Part shown: one piece after another, positions 23,214 to 31,591 of the stretch
Numbering within the stretch: the first letter of the stretch is position 1
How the letters are laid out: every line of letters begins with the position of its first letter
Source: Anaerolineales bacterium
GTDB lineage: Bacteria; Chloroflexota; Anaerolineae; E26-bin7
Length of the DNA stretch: 49,384 nt
Direction: 5' to 3'
Assembly (NCBI GenBank): GCA_004377365.1
Contig: SOHZ01000288.1
Location: 1-49,384, forward strand
The notes under the pieces: generated by a model
What the model was told of the DNA's origin: nothing
What the model saw: only the letters and a program-made list of their open reading frames with translations
The model's database searches: none
Made by a program: the position numbers and the translations under genes

Positions 23214-23570
23214 CTACTCAAGTTCACGCGGTTCTAGTAGAAGCCCGATCCCATCAAGAATCTCGTGCACTCGCCTACTCGAGAGTGTCCCGATCTTTTC
23301 GCCCAATTGGCTCTTATCCACCGTGAAAATCTGAGATACGTTGACGACACTCTGTTTCGGCAGATTGGCCTCTTTTGGTTCAAGGAGGACATTTCCTGGA
23401 GCAGCGGCACGTTTGAGGTTGGAGGTTAGCGCGCAAACGACGACCGTGTTGATACGACTGCGGTTGAACACGTTGTTCTGGACGACCACGTGGGGATGTC
23501 GGTATCCGGGTTCCGAGCCCGAGGGTTCGTCCAGGTCAATCCAGAAGATGTCGCCCTGGTTGATCACCAT
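23214..23570 (-). CDS. MazF/PemK-like endoribonuclease toxin
   Basis: 118 aa; 'MVINQGDIFWIDLDEPSGSEPGYRHPHVVVQNNVFNRSRINTVVVCALTSNLKRAAAPGNVLL' is a canonical PemK/MazF N-terminus. Confidence 0.93.
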   Translation of the reverse strand: MVINQGDIFWIDLDEPSGSEPGYRHPHVVVQNNVFNRSRINTVVVCALTSNLKRAAAPGNVLLEPKEANLPKQSVVNVSQIFTVDKSQLGEKIGTLSSRRVHEILDGIGLLLEPRELE

Positions 23571-23818
23571 TCGCCTTCTACAATCTGCCGATGCTGGCGA
23601 CGCATCCTACGCCGCAGAACTTGCTCCGATGGATCGGGAGCATCGTCGTAAGCGGCGTTGATCCGTTCCAAAAGTTGCTGGCTTTGATGGCGCTGGAAAA
23701 ATTCTTCCAGGGCCAGCACGAATAGGCGGCTGCGTGAGATTTTCATTTCGCTAGCCAGGGTTTCGACTTGCTCAAAGAGGTCTTCTCGAAGAGAGATCGC
23801 TGTTTTGATATGGGCCAT
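23564..23818 (-). CDS. Ribbon-helix-helix (MazE/CopG-like) antitoxin
   Basis: 84 aa directly upstream of mazF and overlapping it by 7 nt; 'HIKTAISLREDLFEQVETLASEMKISRSRLFVLALEEFFQRH'. Confidence 0.85.
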   Translation of the reverse strand: MAHIKTAISLREDLFEQVETLASEMKISRSRLFVLALEEFFQRHQSQQLLERINAAYDDAPDPSEQVLRRRMRRQHRQIVEGEW

Positions 23819-23888: not shown

Positions 23889-24393
23889 TCACTCACTGGC
23901 TACAACCACTACCCCGACGAGTCCAGCACCAGAGTGGACGGACAGACCCGGCGTGAGCTCGGCCGTGAGCACGTCGTCAGGGCATGGCAGGCTGGCGCGC
24001 ACCTGCTCCTCTTGAACGCGGAATTTCGGAACTCGCGGAACACGCGGAAACCATCCGCGCTCTCCGTCCCTCCGCGCTTCCGCGACCCTCATGGCCAGGT
24101 ATTTGAGCGTGGACAGGGCAGCGTAAAGGTACGTGCGCTCGCCCACTGCAACGGCGTGGGCGACGATCTCGTCCCTGGACGCGCCTGTCTGGGCGGCCTC
24201 TGCCGCGGCCAGCACCATGAACCCCTGGCTCATGGAGAGGCTGCGCGAGTCCACCACCGTAAGGTCTCCTGCCCAAAGTGGACGGCGATGGGCACCTGCC
24301 GCCTGTGCCGCAACAGTGGCGGATGCCGTAGCGAGCGGCAACCTCGGCCGGCAGGCTGGAATCGGTGTCGGTGATAATGGCAATGGATGACAT
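23889..24393 (-). pseudogene. degV-like (fatty-acid binding DegV family) pseudogene with internal deletions and two different short-repeat insertions
   Basis: Starts 'MSSIAIITDTDSSLPAEVAARYGIR', frameshifts, resumes 'QVPIAVHFGQETLR', then 'VVDSRSLSMSQGFMVLAAAEAAQTGASRDEIVAHAVAVGERTYLYAALSTLKYLAM', a repeat-derived segment 'RDGERGWFPRVPRVPKFRVQEEQ', and finally a DegV-like C-terminus 'ELTPGLSVHSGAGLVGVVVV'. Confidence 0.8.
24008..24093. repeat. CGGAATT-type dispersed repeat, copy 1 (inside degV remnant)
   Basis: ttgaacgcggaatttcggaactcgcggaacacgcggaaaccatccgcgctctccgtccctccgcgcttccgcgaccctcatgg; similar sequence at 24397, 25281 and 26387. Confidence 0.85.
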
Positions 24394-24396
24394 AGC

Positions 24397-24462
24397 TCCT
24401 CCCTTTGAACGCGGAATTTCGGAGGGCGCGGAATATGCGGAAATCCCTTCCGCGCCCTTCGC
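24397..24462. repeat. CGGAATT-type dispersed repeat, copy 2
   Basis: tcctccctttgaacgcggaatttcggagggcgcggaatatgcggaaatcccttccgcgcccttc. Confidence 0.8.
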
Positions 24463-24557
24463 TCTACTCAGTTGCAATCGTTCAACTCGGCCTCTCACAG
24501 CAGCGACTTTCGCCAGTCCCTGTGAGGTCATTGGCTTGCTTTGGAATGGTTGTGGCT

Positions 24558-25280: not shown

Positions 25281-25354
25281 CCTCCTTTTGAACGCGGAAG
25301 CTCGGAACTCGCGGAATACGCGGAAACCATCCGCGCCCTCGCCCCTCCATGCTT
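25281..25354. repeat. CGGAATT-type dispersed repeat, copy 3
   Basis: cctccttttgaacgcggaagctcggaactcgcggaatacgcggaaaccatccgcgccctcgcccctccatgc. Confidence 0.83.
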
Positions 25355-25375: not shown

Positions 25376-26362
25376 TCAGAGAATCCGCATATCAGCGAGG
25401 TCTCCACAAGCCTCAGGGATTGGCCCGTGCAAAATTACGTCGGTTGCATCAACCCATCTTCCGAGACGCTCAGCAATCGGCTCAGGGTGGGGAGCGAAAA
25501 CGTGCACCAATGGCCGATTTACTCCTGATTTCTTGAGCAGGCGGCCAATCTCAACATCATAGTCTGGAATGCTATAGCCAACAATCAACCATGTTGTTGC
25601 CGCTTTGAGTTTTTCCAATGCTAACTCCCAGATAGGCTTCAGCCATTCGGGAGTCTCTTTCCCTTGAATCGGTGGGATCATAGCGGCATCACCTCGGAAA
25701 GCTGGACGGCAGTCACCATATTTCACCAGAGAGGTTTTCTCAACCGCCCAAGAAATTGAACCGTGAAGTTTCAGCAATGCAACCGAGCCCGAGATTTCGG
25801 GATTTCGTCGGTATTCTGAACGGGGGTGGCCAGTAACACCGGCAAGCAATTCCTTACCAGAGCCGTAATGAAATCCAGGTCTGAGCCGCCGAGGGGTGGG
25901 TCTAGGCCTGAGACCTCGTTCAACCCAAATATCCCAGTTCGTCGTTACGACAGTAAGAGGGTATTCTAGCCCAAGCCTTTGGAAGAGTGCATCCCACCAC
26001 AGTTCGTGTGGGAAGGGTATCTGGGCTTCAAAGATGTTATCACTCGAACGGCTAGATTTGGAGTCATGCTTGTACCACCGTGCGAAATCTTGAGCCAACC
26101 GCATTGCCAGAAATTGCACTATGTCTTGCCAAAGCTTCAAACCGCTGAACTCATTACGATGACGGTACACCTCCGTGACAAATGCCTCGGGGCCGCCATC
26201 ATGTTCTCGGCTCCAGCGGTCCCAGGCAACAAGCACACGCTCAATCAAGCGATTTCGCCATTGAGCCCCGCCGAAGGGCTCGATGTCAAACAGTTCTGCC
26301 GCGAGAGGCGATCCTGCGGTCTTCGAAAAACCAGCACCAAGAATCAAGGCCATGCTTGACAT
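25376..26362 (-). CDS. SIR2-like domain protein
   Basis: 'MSSMALILGAGFSKTAGSPLAAELF' (GAGxS-type NAD loop), 'TVVTTNWDIWVERGL', 'ALLKLHGSISW', 'TTWLIVGYSIPDYDVEIGRLL'. RBS GGAGAGG before ATG at 26362. Confidence 0.85.
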   Translation of the reverse strand: MSSMALILGAGFSKTAGSPLAAELFDIEPFGGAQWRNRLIERVLVAWDRWSREHDGGPEAFVTEVYRHRNEFSGLKLWQDIVQFLAMRLAQDFARWYKHDSKSSRSSDNIFEAQIPFPHELWWDALFQRLGLEYPLTVVTTNWDIWVERGLRPRPTPRRLRPGFHYGSGKELLAGVTGHPRSEYRRNPEISGSVALLKLHGSISWAVEKTSLVKYGDCRPAFRGDAAMIPPIQGKETPEWLKPIWELALEKLKAATTWLIVGYSIPDYDVEIGRLLKKSGVNRPLVHVFAPHPEPIAERLGRWVDATDVILHGPIPEACGDLADMRIL

Positions 26363-26386
26363 ACGAGATTCCTCTCCCAATCTACC

Positions 26387-26470
26387 CGCGCCTTCCGCCT
26401 CTCCGTGCTTCCGCGACCCTCATGGACGGAATCTCGGAACTCGCGGAACTCGCGGAAACCCCTCCCCCCC
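26387..26470. repeat. CGGAATT-type dispersed repeat, copy 4 (permuted order relative to copy 1)
   Basis: cgcgccttccgcctctccgtgcttccgcgaccctcatggacggaatctcggaactcgcggaactcgcggaaacccctccc; the 'ccttcc...ccctcatgg' block precedes rather than follows the 'cggaatctcgg' block. Confidence 0.75.
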
Positions 26471-26569
26471 GGCCTCATGGACGTCCAGCAAGTGATCATA
26501 ATCAGGATTGGCCTTGGCCAACTCCCGCTCCCGATGAGCGATGCGCAAAGCGGCTTCCTTATCGGACAA
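26420..26569 (-). pseudogene. Small ORF remnant downstream of the NLR-like gene, 3' end replaced by the dispersed repeat
   Basis: TTG start after GGGGCGAGG; translation MSDKEAALRIAHRERELAKANPDYDHLLDVHEAGGEGFPRVPRVPRFRP*. The tail FPRVPRVPRFR is encoded by the repeat, as in the degV remnant. Confidence 0.55.
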
Positions 26570-26583
26570 CGATTACCTCGCCC

Positions 26584-29500
26584 CTACTCCAAAACCGCCC
26601 CCTGTGCCGCCAGCCATTGGCCAAGGGTCACGTTTTCAACAACGTATTCCTCCGCTTCCTCGTTGAACACTTTCTTTGTATGTACAACTGCATCTAGTCC
26701 CTTGGCTCCGGCCAGTTGTAGATTCTGACATCTCAAACGCTGGGAAATTCTAGCTATTGGATAGAATTTTTCCATCTCTTTTGTTGAGAAAATCACGATA
26801 GTTCCATCGTCAAGTCCTGCAGCGATGAGGTCCCCAGTGTTGTCGTAGCTCACGCTTTTGATAACTCCTATCTTACTGGTGGTCTCATAGCACTTGTACA
26901 TCATCGGATGATCCGTAGCAAAAAAGTAGATTCTATTACTAAGACCAACTGCAGCTTCCTCAACTCTTGGGTGGAGATCGAAGTTCCTGGGAAAACTAAG
27001 TCTCAACGTCAAAGCGTAGCGCCTGGACTGGATTTGTACCTCCAGGCAAATCGATGAGCGATGTGAGCGCCTGAACCTGGCATCGTTGTTTCTTTGTGAG
27101 GCAAAGTGAGCGCAAATCGAGGACTTGCTAGTTCCGACTTGATAGTATTTCTCATCGAATTCTTCTGAACCAAGCACTCTGGTGTTACGTGTCTGCAGCG
27201 ACAGCACATGAATTGATCGGGTACTAATGTCCCAAATTAGAAGGTCATCGCCGCTAAAGGCAATATCGCCCGGTCGCCAAGTTTGTCGAAAACTAGCATA
27301 TCGAGACTGCTTTTCAAGGTGCCATATGCAGACATTTCCATCATCATCGCAGCTAGCAATCAAATCTCCTTTCGCAGACCAGCAAATAGCCTTCAGTGGA
27401 GCAGAATGACCACTGAATGTAATAACCTCCTTCACATTCTTAAGCTCGCTCACGTCCCATATGTGCAAGTAGGTGTCCATGCCGCCACTAGCTAGCATCG
27501 TCCCCTCCGGGCTGAAGGCGATAGAGTTCACCGCACTCATCTCGCTGAACTGGGCATTAGTCAGGTCGGCGTCCCGCAGATTGGCGTTTACTAGCGTGCC
27601 GCCTCGGAATTGGACGGATCGCAGATTGGCAGACCGCAAATTGCAGTCAGTCAGATCGGGATTCTGTAATTGGACGAATTGCAGATTGGCAGACCGCAAA
27701 TTGCAGCCGGTTAGGTCAGGGTTCTGCAAGTTAGCATAGCTCAGGTTAACTTCGCGCAGATTATGCCCCTTGAGAGTCAGAGGGTCGCACCGGATAAGCA
27801 GTGTGGCGACGTTGCCCCCCGTAGTCCCTACGTCATCCATGGTTTTGACTCGCGTCCTGGCAATGACGGCCAATAGTCGCTCTTTGACAGCTTCCTCGTT
27901 CGGACCAAGCATGTTCTGCATCAATTCTAGTATGGCTTTGGTAAACGGTTCCTTGCCCACGGTTTCCGCCAGATTCTTCATTTCTTCAGCTACAAACTCT
28001 CGGAGGTGTGAGATGGGTTTAATGGCGCCCGTTTCATCTACCTTACGCTGGAAATAGGAGGACCACGCGTAGTCCTGGGGTGACGCACTCTCATCCAAAT
28101 GTGACTGCTGTTGGGCCATTACAGTAAGGTCTGGGGCCAACACACCTAGTTCGGCGGCAAATTTGTAGGCCACGAAGAACTCCAGGAGTGAACGATGGGC
28201 CGGGGTATAGTCGCCGTCGGCGTTGCGGATCAGCATGGTTTGGCCCATCATGTCGTAGTGCCAATGGTCCAGGTCCTTTTGTTCCTGTACGACGGGACCG
28301 AAGAGACGGCGCAGGCGATCAGGAAATTGACGGTAGTTGAGGCTCATCTGGTCGGTAGAGAGCATCTCCCATGACAACTCGCACAAGAAGTGGAGCTTGT
28401 CGGCCAGCGAGGTAAAGGTGCGCTCCGCTTTGATGTCCCGCTCCATCTTGCGCCGTACGGCGTAGAGGTAGATGCGCGATAGGTCCACTGGCTTGCCGGC
28501 CTCGATGTCGGGCAGCGCCTCCAGGATGAACTCGGTCATCACCGGGCGGCGGGCCAAGTCGAGAAGCTGGGGATTGCTCATCACCTGCTTCACTATGGCA
28601 GGCTCGGCCCGCAACGACAGCACCTGGCGGATTTGGGCGTCATCGAATTTCTCCAGTTCCAGCACCTCGAACTGGGGCGGTTCGCCGGTCAGCTTGGAAG
28701 TAGAGGCTTGCAATTCCGCACTGAGCAGGGCACGGCCCTCTCTGGCCTCTGGAAAGTGCTCGGTGCGACAGGTGAGAATCGCCTTGGCCCCCGAAACCAC
28801 CACCCGGGCCAGTTCCCAAAAGTTGTTAATCATCTTTTGGCGATCTACTTTAGCTGCCATCTCGTCAAAGCCATCGAAGATGAGCAGCAGCTTGCCCATG
28901 CGGTTGAGTTGCTCAAAGGCGGAATAGCCGGGCAGGGGGATCTCGTGCTTGCGGAAGAAGAATTCGGAAAAGAGGGACTCAACGCTGACCGCCTTGGCAT
29001 AGTCGCGCAGGGGGATGACCAGGGGCAGGCGGGGTCGTTCGACACCCCGTTCTTTGGCCTCGCGGTAGCGTTGCAAGGCGGTCCAGGCATAGTGCAAGGC
29101 GAACCAGGTCTTGCCGGTGCCGAACTCGCCCAGGATGGAGATGTGCTCCTTGGCCGGGTCATCCAGCCAGCGATCAATGTAGCCGTCTATCCAGCCGTTG
29201 CGGTCGTTGTAACGACTTTCCCCAACCTTTTTCTTGGTGACCGGATCGAACTCCTCTTTGGTACAAGCCAAGGGGACGTACATTCGGTCAATGCCATGGC
29301 GCTTGACCTCGGCCTCCAACCAATCGAGGTAGCCGCTAAAGTCGGCGTGCTCGTCCAGCAGTTCGTCAAAGGTGTAGCAAAAGAGGTCGCGATTCTCCTT
29401 CTTTTCGAGTTCGTCACAGGCGGCTTGACTTTTACGACGGGCAGCCACCAGCCAGCCCTCATCGGTCTTTTGGTCGTTCACGGCTTGGCGCAAGGCCGCG

Positions 29501-30228
29501 ACATCGCTCACTTCGGCCTCACCTTCGATGCCGCGCACCAGGATGCGGTCGTATCCCCGCCGCGCTGGGATGTTGATGATCCACTCGAAATAGTCCTCGG
29601 CTCGGATGGCGTGGCTTTCAAAACGGTAGCCGAGGGTTTCAAACCAGGCCTTCATCTGCTGGGCCAGGTAGTCGGAGGGGGTGCCCTGAGGCAGACGTTC
29701 GCGGCTGGCAGCCTGCAGGCGGTCCACCTCGGCCTGGAGGCGAGCGATCTTGTCCTGGGAAACACGTGCTGCCTGAATCTCGGCTGTCATCTCTCGGTGC
29801 CGCCACACCAACCAGGCCATGATGTCATCGGCGACTTGCTGGCCCAATTCTACGGCGCTGTCGAAGTAGTCGTAGGTCACACCTTTTTGCAGGTCGTAGA
29901 TCTCGTTCTCCAGGAAATCTTCCAATGCTTTCTCTCGTTGAATATCCTTGTCGCGGATGTAGACAAAGCATTCCTTACCCAGGGCGCGAGCGTGGTGGTA
30001 CTCCTGCACCGTTACCTCGCCGTACTTTTGCCAGAACAGTCCCAGATAGATGTCGGCGGCCTCCACCTCGCGCAATGAGGTCTCTACCACATCTTCCGGC
30101 CTAGCGCCGGCGTGAGCTTCATACACCCAGGCCTCAATCCCTTTGTCATCGAGGGCCTTGGCGACAACCTCGCGTACGTCGCGCAGTTCAGCCATCTTGG
30201 AACTGATAAACACCTTGAGCTTTTCCAT
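26584..30228 (-). CDS. NLR/STAND-like protein: DUF4062 - endonuclease-like region - NACHT NTPase - pentapeptide repeats - WD40 - closing segment
   Basis: 1214 aa. N-term 'LKVFISSKMAELRDVREVVAKALDDKGIEAW' (DUF4062-like); Walker A 'GEFGTGKTWFALHYA', Walker B 'LLLIFDGFDEM', 'AILTCRTEHF'. Pentapeptides 'NLREVNLSYANLQNPDLTGCNLRSANL'; WD40-like 'VNSIAFSPEGTMLASGGMDTYLHIWDVSE'. Confidence 0.88.
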   Translation of the reverse strand: MEKLKVFISSKMAELRDVREVVAKALDDKGIEAWVYEAHAGARPEDVVETSLREVEAADIYLGLFWQKYGEVTVQEYHHARALGKECFVYIRDKDIQREKALEDFLENEIYDLQKGVTYDYFDSAVELGQQVADDIMAWLVWRHREMTAEIQAARVSQDKIARLQAEVDRLQAASRERLPQGTPSDYLAQQMKAWFETLGYRFESHAIRAEDYFEWIINIPARRGYDRILVRGIEGEAEVSDVAALRQAVNDQKTDEGWLVAARRKSQAACDELEKKENRDLFCYTFDELLDEHADFSGYLDWLEAEVKRHGIDRMYVPLACTKEEFDPVTKKKVGESRYNDRNGWIDGYIDRWLDDPAKEHISILGEFGTGKTWFALHYAWTALQRYREAKERGVERPRLPLVIPLRDYAKAVSVESLFSEFFFRKHEIPLPGYSAFEQLNRMGKLLLIFDGFDEMAAKVDRQKMINNFWELARVVVSGAKAILTCRTEHFPEAREGRALLSAELQASTSKLTGEPPQFEVLELEKFDDAQIRQVLSLRAEPAIVKQVMSNPQLLDLARRPVMTEFILEALPDIEAGKPVDLSRIYLYAVRRKMERDIKAERTFTSLADKLHFLCELSWEMLSTDQMSLNYRQFPDRLRRLFGPVVQEQKDLDHWHYDMMGQTMLIRNADGDYTPAHRSLLEFFVAYKFAAELGVLAPDLTVMAQQQSHLDESASPQDYAWSSYFQRKVDETGAIKPISHLREFVAEEMKNLAETVGKEPFTKAILELMQNMLGPNEEAVKERLLAVIARTRVKTMDDVGTTGGNVATLLIRCDPLTLKGHNLREVNLSYANLQNPDLTGCNLRSANLQFVQLQNPDLTDCNLRSANLRSVQFRGGTLVNANLRDADLTNAQFSEMSAVNSIAFSPEGTMLASGGMDTYLHIWDVSELKNVKEVITFSGHSAPLKAICWSAKGDLIASCDDDGNVCIWHLEKQSRYASFRQTWRPGDIAFSGDDLLIWDISTRSIHVLSLQTRNTRVLGSEEFDEKYYQVGTSKSSICAHFASQRNNDARFRRSHRSSICLEVQIQSRRYALTLRLSFPRNFDLHPRVEEAAVGLSNRIYFFATDHPMMYKCYETTSKIGVIKSVSYDNTGDLIAAGLDDGTIVIFSTKEMEKFYPIARISQRLRCQNLQLAGAKGLDAVVHTKKVFNEEAEEYVVENVTLGQWLAAQGAVLE
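27611..27730. repeat. Two tandem 60-bp units within the pentapeptide-encoding region
   Basis: 27611-27670 and 27671-27730 share tggac...gcagattggcagaccgcaaattgcag...; 60 bp = 20 aa = four pentapeptides. Confidence 0.9.
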
Positions 30229-30247: not shown

Positions 30248-30484
30248 TCAATTTACCGACACACCTAGCTTCATGTATTCACCAGCCTCATATTCCATCC
30301 GAGCTTCTCGAATCTCAGCCATGATGCGAAGATTGGCTAACATCAACTCATCCTCGTACTCAGCTAGCTTCTCGTCCAGCCACTCACGCAATCGCAGCAT
30401 ATCCTGGGGCTGCAATTGCTCCATGAGCCTGGTTAGCGCGGAAAACGGCACCTTGAGCTGAATGTCCCTTTCATCTACCCCCAT
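30248..30484 (-). CDS. Small antitoxin-like protein of unknown family
   Basis: 'MGVDERDIQLKVPFSALTRLMEQLQPQDMLRLREWLDEKLAEYEDELMLANLRIMAEIREARMEYEAGEYMKLGVSVN'. Ends 19 nt before the NLR-like start. Confidence 0.6.
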   Translation of the reverse strand: MGVDERDIQLKVPFSALTRLMEQLQPQDMLRLREWLDEKLAEYEDELMLANLRIMAEIREARMEYEAGEYMKLGVSVN

Positions 30485-30505
30485 ACTCCCATCCCCTTTC
30501 ACATC

Positions 30506-30777: not shown

Positions 30778-31017
30778 CTACGCCGTCAGAGATAGCGGCA
30801 GGCGGAACACGGGCGCCTGTCCCACTGGCGTTTCGGTTTCCGGATCCAGGGCAAACAGGGTGTCCAGCACGCGCAAATCCAGCACCGTATACCCACACAC
30901 CGGGCAAACCAGCGCTGGCAGATCTTCAACGACAATGGGATTTCCATCACGCACAAATGTATGCACGATCCGGCGTTGCTCCATTTCGCCAGGGCATCCC
31001 TGAACAATGCATTTCAT
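30778..31017 (-). CDS. YgiT/MqsA-type zinc-finger protein (antitoxin-like)
   Basis: 79 aa; 'MKCIVQGCPGEMEQRRIVHTFVRDGNPIVVEDLPALVCPVCGYTVLD' with two Cys pairs. Confidence 0.82.
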   Translation of the reverse strand: MKCIVQGCPGEMEQRRIVHTFVRDGNPIVVEDLPALVCPVCGYTVLDLRVLDTLFALDPETETPVGQAPVFRLPLSLTA

Positions 31018-31340
31018 CGCTCGTAACCTCCTCGTAAGGTTGGTGTGATCCATTTGGGTGGACGGGGTTCATACACGGTGATAATCGTGACCGGAAAGCC
31101 CGAGTAGGAGGCAACAATGTGTAAATCGCGTCCAGCGGCGGTCCGTCCATGGATCAGACATGATGGCCCAAGCCACCACTGGGGATAATCCTCAAGCAGT
31201 TGCGCGTTGAGCATGGCCTCCTCTATCTCTGGCCGGGTGATGTGTTCAGCGAGTGCCTCCTCAGCCGCGTATAGTGAAATCTTGAGTTGGTGTTCTCGTA
31301 CCGTTCGTTCGAACAGGTCCAGAATGGACGCCGTGTTCAA
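31014..31340 (-). CDS. DUF4258-like toxin-type protein
   Basis: 108 aa; 'ISLYAAEEALAEHITRPEIEEAMLNAQLLEDYPQWWLGPSCLIHGRTAAGRDLHIVASYSGFPVTIITVYEP'. Overlaps YgiT by 4 nt; start codon is TTG. Confidence 0.78.
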   Translation of the reverse strand: MNTASILDLFERTVREHQLKISLYAAEEALAEHITRPEIEEAMLNAQLLEDYPQWWLGPSCLIHGRTAAGRDLHIVASYSGFPVTIITVYEPRPPKWITPTLRGGYER

Positions 31341-31531
31341 TCCAGCTCTTCGGGCAGAGGTTCACCGTCAGCTAGCCTGTCTTCGACGTGCAACCCGATG
31401 GCGCCCCTGATATTCTCCAGGGCCTCTTCGTAGGTATCTCCCTGGGTATAGCACCCTTTCAACTGGGGACAATAGGCGAAATAGCCATCGGCGTCCTTCT
31501 CAATGAAAACAGGCAAAGAGAGTTTTTCCAT
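31337..31531 (-). CDS. HicB-like antitoxin-type protein
   Basis: 'MEKLSLPVFIEKDADGYFAYCPQLKGCYTQGDTYEEALENIRGAIGLHVEDRLADGEPLPEE'. Confidence 0.85.
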   Translation of the reverse strand: MEKLSLPVFIEKDADGYFAYCPQLKGCYTQGDTYEEALENIRGAIGLHVEDRLADGEPLPEELD

Positions 31532-31591
31532 GATCTCACTATCGGACTTTTTCAAACGCAAAGGTTTCGAATCACGAATGGGCGAATTTCA

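What the first reader, a model, noticed from the sequence alone, without database searches (positions are those of the whole stretch)
25376..30228. Candidate two-gene immune-type locus: SIR2-like gene downstream of a DUF4062-NACHT-pentapeptide-WD40 NLR-like protein
Seen: a 1214-aa STAND/NLR-like ORF with intact Walker A (GEFGTGKT) and Walker B (LIFDGFDEM) is followed on the same strand by a compact SIR2-like ORF. The SIR2 ORF retains NAD-loop (GAGFS), TTNWD and LHGS motifs. Established: SIR2 domains are NAD-depleting effectors in several defence systems (Thoeris ThsA, SIR2-APAZ, DSR, Avs variants), and bacterial NACHT/STAND NTPases sense phage. Inference: the NLR may be a sensor with a DUF4062 (TIR-like) N-terminus acting with SIR2 in trans, a split TIR-like/SIR2 layout loosely analogous to Thoeris. 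The ~220-bp gap with a repeat and a gene remnant weakens the case for a strict operon.
Basis: partly seen in the sequence, partly recalled or inferred. Interest (0 to 1): 0.78.

Follow-up and report, generated by a model that had tools for sequence, protein, structure and literature searches.

The report
Bacterial NLR-type receptor beside solo SIR2
A Chloroflexota genome carries an intact immune-receptor-like gene whose own N-terminal domain belongs to the newly described TIR-like NAD-destroying family (DUF4062), and the SIR2 gene next to it is most likely a separate, solo defence gene rather than its conserved partner.

Summary
Both ORFs are real and intact. DUF4062 is a TIR-like NADase family (preprint PMC13174449; PDB 10wc, 11gz), and its catalytic Glu is kept here as E76. 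The NACHT chassis (aa 310-800) is 58-75% identical to cyanobacterial plasmid NLRs whose N-terminal slot holds an NNH5 or caspase domain; a 34%-identical Chloroflexota relative has SIR2 there. So DUF4062 sits in the effector slot, and the receptor probably depletes NAD by itself when activated (inferred). The SIR2 (328 aa) keeps the NAD loop, N142 and H200, and is nearest to defence SIR2s (SIR2-HerA), not metabolic sirtuins. In a tree it falls among solo SIR2 genes, apart from the ThsA-like SIR2s that are fused to or precede STAND genes in the same genome. Of 71 other DUF4062 genes in 399 genomes of the phylum, one has a SIR2 neighbour, from a different SIR2 branch. The 221-bp gap holds a dispersed repeat and a 34-codon remnant. 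New variant of a known kind.

The parts
26584..30228 (-). NLR-like receptor gene, 1214 aa: DUF4062 / NA-iREase1 / NACHT / pentapeptide / WD40
   Evidence: ORF; Pfam; RBS
29806..30222 (-). DUF4062 TIR-like domain (aa 3-141); predicted catalytic Glu E76 in TVQE76Y
   Evidence: Pfam; alignment A3; PDB profile hits KpSwz 10wc 1e-23 and TEP1 11gz 7e-9; wild-type homologs
29353..29667 (-). NA-iREase1 domain (aa 188-292)
   Evidence: Pfam E 2.7e-41; genome search
28621..29142 (-). NACHT NTPase core (aa 363-536), Walker A GEFGTGKT, Walker B LLLIFDGFDEM
   Evidence: Pfam; alignment with cyanobacterial plasmid homologs
27529..27762 (-). pentapeptide repeats (aa 823-900)
   Evidence: Pfam; 60-nt direct repeat 27608-27727
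26755..27540 (-). WD40 region, about one propeller (aa 897-1158); central blades poorly recognisable
   Evidence: Pfam
25376..26362 (-). SIR2-like gene, 328 aa; GAGFS, N142, H200 kept
26386..26460 (-). dispersed repeat in the gap, just upstream of the SIR2 start
26468..26569 (-). 34-codon open remnant of unknown origin in the gap, beginning at a TTG 14 nt after the NLR stop
30248..30502 (-). 84-aa ORF ending 19 nt upstream of the NLR start; function unknown, possibly on the same transcript

Best explanation
The locus holds two neighbouring, probably independent antiphage genes. The first is a self-contained NLR-type receptor: its C-terminal pentapeptide/WD40 part senses an unknown ligand, the NACHT NTPase oligomerises, and the clustered N-terminal DUF4062 domains, a TIR-like NADase with catalytic E76, hydrolyse NAD+ and stop the infected cell. 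The second, SIR2, is a solo SIR2-family NADase. Shown here: the domains, the kept catalytic residues, exchanged N-terminal domains on a shared chassis, and the absence of conserved linkage. Inferred: ligand sensing, oligomerisation, NAD depletion, antiphage role.
For: DUF4062 proteins are TIR-like NADases in antiphage defence (PMC13174449). A profile of 28 DUF4062 domains including this one hits KpSwz (1e-23) and TEP1 (7e-9) in the PDB. The Glu invariant in that alignment aligns to an Ala in the deposited KpSwz sequence, read here as the published E97A mutant; natural homologs have Glu there. So E76 is the catalytic position. The chassis is 58-75% identical to cyanobacterial plasmid proteins with NNH5 or caspase in the N-terminal slot, and a Chloroflexota relative has a ThsA-like SIR2 there: effector exchange on a constant chassis. 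SIR2: PDB profile hits are to defence SIR2s (5e-7, 9e-6; fold); the tree places it with solo SIR2 genes (95/86) and apart from STAND-linked SIR2s. Linkage tests.
Against: No activity was tested. In humans NWD1, NWD2 and NPHP3 have DUF4062-NACHT but showed no NADase activity in the same preprint, so a kept fold does not guarantee catalysis. The window's domain lacks the loop between YG and TxxEY that most relatives have. Both genes lie on one strand with no predicted terminator between them, so co-transcription is possible. STAND-SIR2 gene pairs do exist in this genome.
Confidence: 0.6

Rival explanations
1. NLR and SIR2 form one two-gene system with two NADase modules; the activated receptor recruits or triggers the SIR2.
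For: Same strand, no terminator seen in the gap. In the own genome ThsA-like SIR2 genes sit upstream of STAND genes with gaps of 6, -56 and 83 bp, one of them TIR-nSTAND1-WD40. G130 has a DUF4062-STAND gene with a SIR2 47 bp downstream. SIR2 occupies the N-terminal slot in the G011 relative.
Against: The SIR2 clade differs from all those pairs; the order is reversed against the own-genome pairs; 221-bp gap with repeat and gene remnant; no SIR2 at seven plasmid loci of the chassis; 1 of 71 other DUF4062 genes has a SIR2 neighbour.
Confidence: 0.22
2. Thoeris-like signalling: DUF4062 makes an ADP-ribose-derived signal that activates the SIR2.
For: TIR-like domain and SIR2 adjacent, as in Thoeris ThsB/ThsA.
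Against: TEP1 DUF4062 made no extra ADP-ribose derivatives and KpSwz gave ADP-ribose and nicotinamide. The SIR2 is 328 aa with no second domain found. PADLOC ThsA models do not hit it, though they hit other SIR2s of this genome.
Confidence: 0.04
3. The locus is a decaying defence island; the NLR is intact in reading frame but no longer functional.
For: WD40 region short and low in GC (0.477 against 0.576 for the chassis), degV remnant and gene remnant nearby, dispersed repeats.
Against: 1214 codons without stop, good ribosome-binding site, all catalytic motifs kept, chassis up to 75% identical to cyanobacterial homologs.
Confidence: 0.12

Closest known systems
Cyanobacterial plasmid NACHT proteins (Nostoc, Calothrix, Annamia, Acaryochloris; e.g. 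WP_114080806.1, WP_179069641.1)
   Same: NA-iREase1 and NACHT chassis, aa 310-800 58-75% identical; WD40 C-terminus
   Different: N-terminal NNH5 or caspase instead of DUF4062; mostly longer WD40 arrays with little identity
Swarozyc (KpSwz, DUF4062 NADase; PMC13174449, PDB 10wc)
   Same: DUF4062 TIR-like domain with the catalytic Glu
   Different: KpSwz has a short HTH/winged AUX domain binding phage portal, no NACHT or WD40
Human TEP1/NWD1/NWD2 (DUF4062-NACHT-WD40)
   Same: domain order DUF4062, NACHT, WD40
   Different: NA-iREase1 and pentapeptides here; no TROVE/vWA; NACHT kinship not tested
SIR2-HerA (Nezha) SIR2 subunit
   Same: nearest solved SIR2 by profile and fold
   Different: no HerA neighbour here; about 14% identity in the fold match, low-confidence model
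Thoeris ThsA/ThsB
   Same: TIR-like domain and SIR2 near each other
   Different: no SLOG domain; SIR2 outside the ThsA-like clade

Membership tests
DUF4062 TIR-like NADases (Swarozyc family in the broad sense) | DUF4062 domain above curated cut-off | tested here: met
   41.7 bits against 24.7
DUF4062 TIR-like NADases (Swarozyc family in the broad sense) | conserved catalytic Glu | tested here: met
   E76
DUF4062 TIR-like NADases (Swarozyc family in the broad sense) | NAD hydrolysis | not testable with these tools
   needs an enzyme assay
Swarozyc proper | C-terminal AUX (HTH/winged) portal-binding domain | tested here: inconclusive
   C-terminus is NACHT-pentapeptide-WD40 by Pfam; no AUX model was on hand to search with
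NACHT/STAND receptors | NACHT domain with intact Walker A and B and C-terminal repeats | tested here: met
Thoeris | ThsA: SIR2 of the ThsA type with SLOG or other C-terminal sensor | tested here: not met
   no ThsA hit and no second domain; tree
SIR2 antiphage NADases | SIR2 domain with GAGxS loop, catalytic Asn and His | tested here: met
SIR2 antiphage NADases | not in the canonical deacetylase family | tested here: met
   only SIR2_2 hit at E up to 1 in Pfam; canonical sirtuins rank below SIR2-HerA
Conserved NLR-SIR2 operon | same SIR2 clade beside related NLRs in other genomes | tested here: not met

The most novel reading that the evidence does not exclude
The DUF4062-NACHT-WD40 receptor and the SIR2 act together as a dual-NADase system, a bacterial counterpart of the TEP1/NWD1 architecture with a second executioner in trans.
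Probability: 0.2. Interest if true: 0.72.

Novelty: new variant of a known kind. Interest (0 to 1): 0.5.

Why it matters
The receptor places a TIR-like NADase (DUF4062) in the effector slot of a NACHT chassis shared with cyanobacterial plasmids, and it has the same order of modules as human TEP1 and NWD1. The preprint that defined the family only speculates that WD40 sensing and NACHT oligomerisation switch DUF4062 on. A bacterial protein with this layout could make that step testable. It is also a clear case of effector exchange (caspase, NNH5, SIR2, DUF4062) on one receptor chassis.

Tried and rejected
Single-protein scan of genome contigs for SIR2 found nothing; the two-sequence alignment found seven loci, none beside a NACHT gene. 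Viral contigs, phages and plasmids gave no SIR2 relative. NLR search of phages: none. The DUF4062 alignment had no stretch conserved enough for a viral scan; the NACHT alignment gave two weak viral hits, with no SIR2 on them, not followed further. The SIR2 model is weak (pLDDT 58) and the single-sequence DUF4062 model is poor (pLDDT 47, not used). A 329-aa gene downstream of the Annamia homolog looked like a SIR2 by size but is a transposase. The G130 DUF4062-STAND/SIR2 pair looked like a second instance, but its SIR2 groups elsewhere with 91/90 support, on a long branch. Chance of such a pair: about 72 x 88 x 20 kb / 1.6 Gb = 0.08 expected (my estimate, with about 4.1 Mb per genome), so one case is weak evidence.

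Full report
OBSERVATION. The NLR-like gene is 26584-30228 (-), 1214 aa, with a good ribosome-binding site. Pfam gives DUF4062 (5-73), NA-iREase1 (188-292, E 2.7e-41), NACHT (363-536), pentapeptides (823-900) and WD40 from about 897. The NA-iREase1 domain was not in the finding. The SIR2 gene is best read from ATG 26362 (328 aa). Its Pfam SIR2_2 score is below the curated cut-off, but a 37% relative in a Candidatus Dormiibacterota genome and PDB profile hits confirm the family.

WHAT THE N-TERMINUS IS. DUF4062 was recently described as a family of TIR-like NADases with an antiphage role (Swarozyc) and a human member, TEP1 (preprint PMC13174449). A profile of 28 DUF4062 domains hits KpSwz and TEP1 in the PDB. 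Only one Glu is invariant in that alignment, and E76 is also nearly invariant in 41 long DUF4062 proteins. The KpSwz deposit shows Ala at this column, which I read as the published E97A mutant; plasmid homologs from Vibrio alginolyticus and Acinetobacter junii have Glu. The window protein keeps it as E76.

A SHARED CHASSIS WITH EXCHANGED ENDS. Against plasmid records the NLR matches Nostoc, Calothrix, Annamia and Acaryochloris proteins. Identity is 58-75% over aa 310-800, but at most 20% over the N-terminus and 16-26% over the pentapeptide and WD40 parts. Their N-terminal slot holds NNH5 in four and a caspase in one. A Chloroflexota relative (G011, L013; NACHT 34%) has a ThsA-like SIR2 there. 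The window's DUF4062 is 67% identical to a lone 239-aa DUF4062 ORF in another Chloroflexota genome (G358). This is the pattern of a receptor chassis with exchanged effector and sensor, a theme described for STAND systems (PMC8195603; PMC10907252). It argues that DUF4062 is the effector of this receptor.

THE SIR2 GENE. It keeps GAGFS, N142 and H200. Nearest solved structures are SIR2 subunits of SIR2-HerA systems (the model is weak). A tree of 34 SIR2 domains puts it with the Dormiibacterota gene (100/100) inside a set of solo SIR2 genes (95/86), apart from the ThsA-like SIR2s that are fused to, or lie directly upstream of, STAND genes.

LINKAGE. In 399 genomes of the phylum there are 72 DUF4062 and 88 SIR2_2 matches at the thresholds used. 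Apart from the window, one pair is adjacent: G130, a DUF4062-STAND gene with a Dsr1-like C-terminus followed 47 bp on by a SIR2, next to a type III restriction enzyme. Its SIR2 groups elsewhere in the tree. A SIR2 profile found none in the flanks of the other DUF4062 genes, though many contigs are short, nor near the plasmid homologs. The own genome does have STAND-SIR2 pairs: C160, C166 and C424, the last with a TIR-nSTAND1-WD40 partner; in these the SIR2 is upstream and of the ThsA-like clade.

THE GAP. The 221 bp hold a repeat that occurs elsewhere in the genome (19 matches to a longer copy) and a short open remnant starting 14 nt after the NLR stop, with no Pfam match. One reading is that another gene once followed the NLR and the SIR2 came later.

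VERDICT. A defence role for both genes is likely. The NLR most likely carries its own NADase, and the SIR2 is more likely a neighbour than a partner (about 0.22 for partnership).

Noticed in passing
window 24010-24110, 24405-24461, 25288-25354, 26386-26460: Dispersed repeat, 19 matches in the own genome, here just upstream of start codons of the SIR2, the DUF2281 gene and a degV remnant; several copies lie near contig ends.
   Followed up: partly
window 23889-24531 (-): Apparent degV pseudogene with frame changes (starts MSSIAIITDTDSSLPAEVAARYGI, then continues in another frame).
   Followed up: no
window 23214-23818 and 30778-31561 (-): Toxin-antitoxin-like genes on both sides: PemK/MazF with a small partner, DUF4258 with a weak MqsA-like zinc-ribbon gene, HicB-like.
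   Followed up: partly
   Followed up: partly
L065 4381-8790: Own genome, contig C160: SIR2 6 bp upstream of an nSTAND1-subtilase-FGE protein.
   Followed up: partly
L091 5013-6827, L110 7794-9674, L112 3525-5411: Macro domain fused to a C-terminal DUF4062 in several Chloroflexota: an ADP-ribose-binding type domain with a TIR-like NADase domain.
   Followed up: partly
L012 2275-8288: G130: DUF4062-STAND gene with Dsr1-like C-terminus and a SIR2 47 bp downstream, beside a type III restriction enzyme.
   Followed up: partly
L014 8281-9000: Lone 239-aa DUF4062 ORF, 67% identical to the NLR N-terminus, ending at the same coiled-coil boundary.
   Followed up: partly
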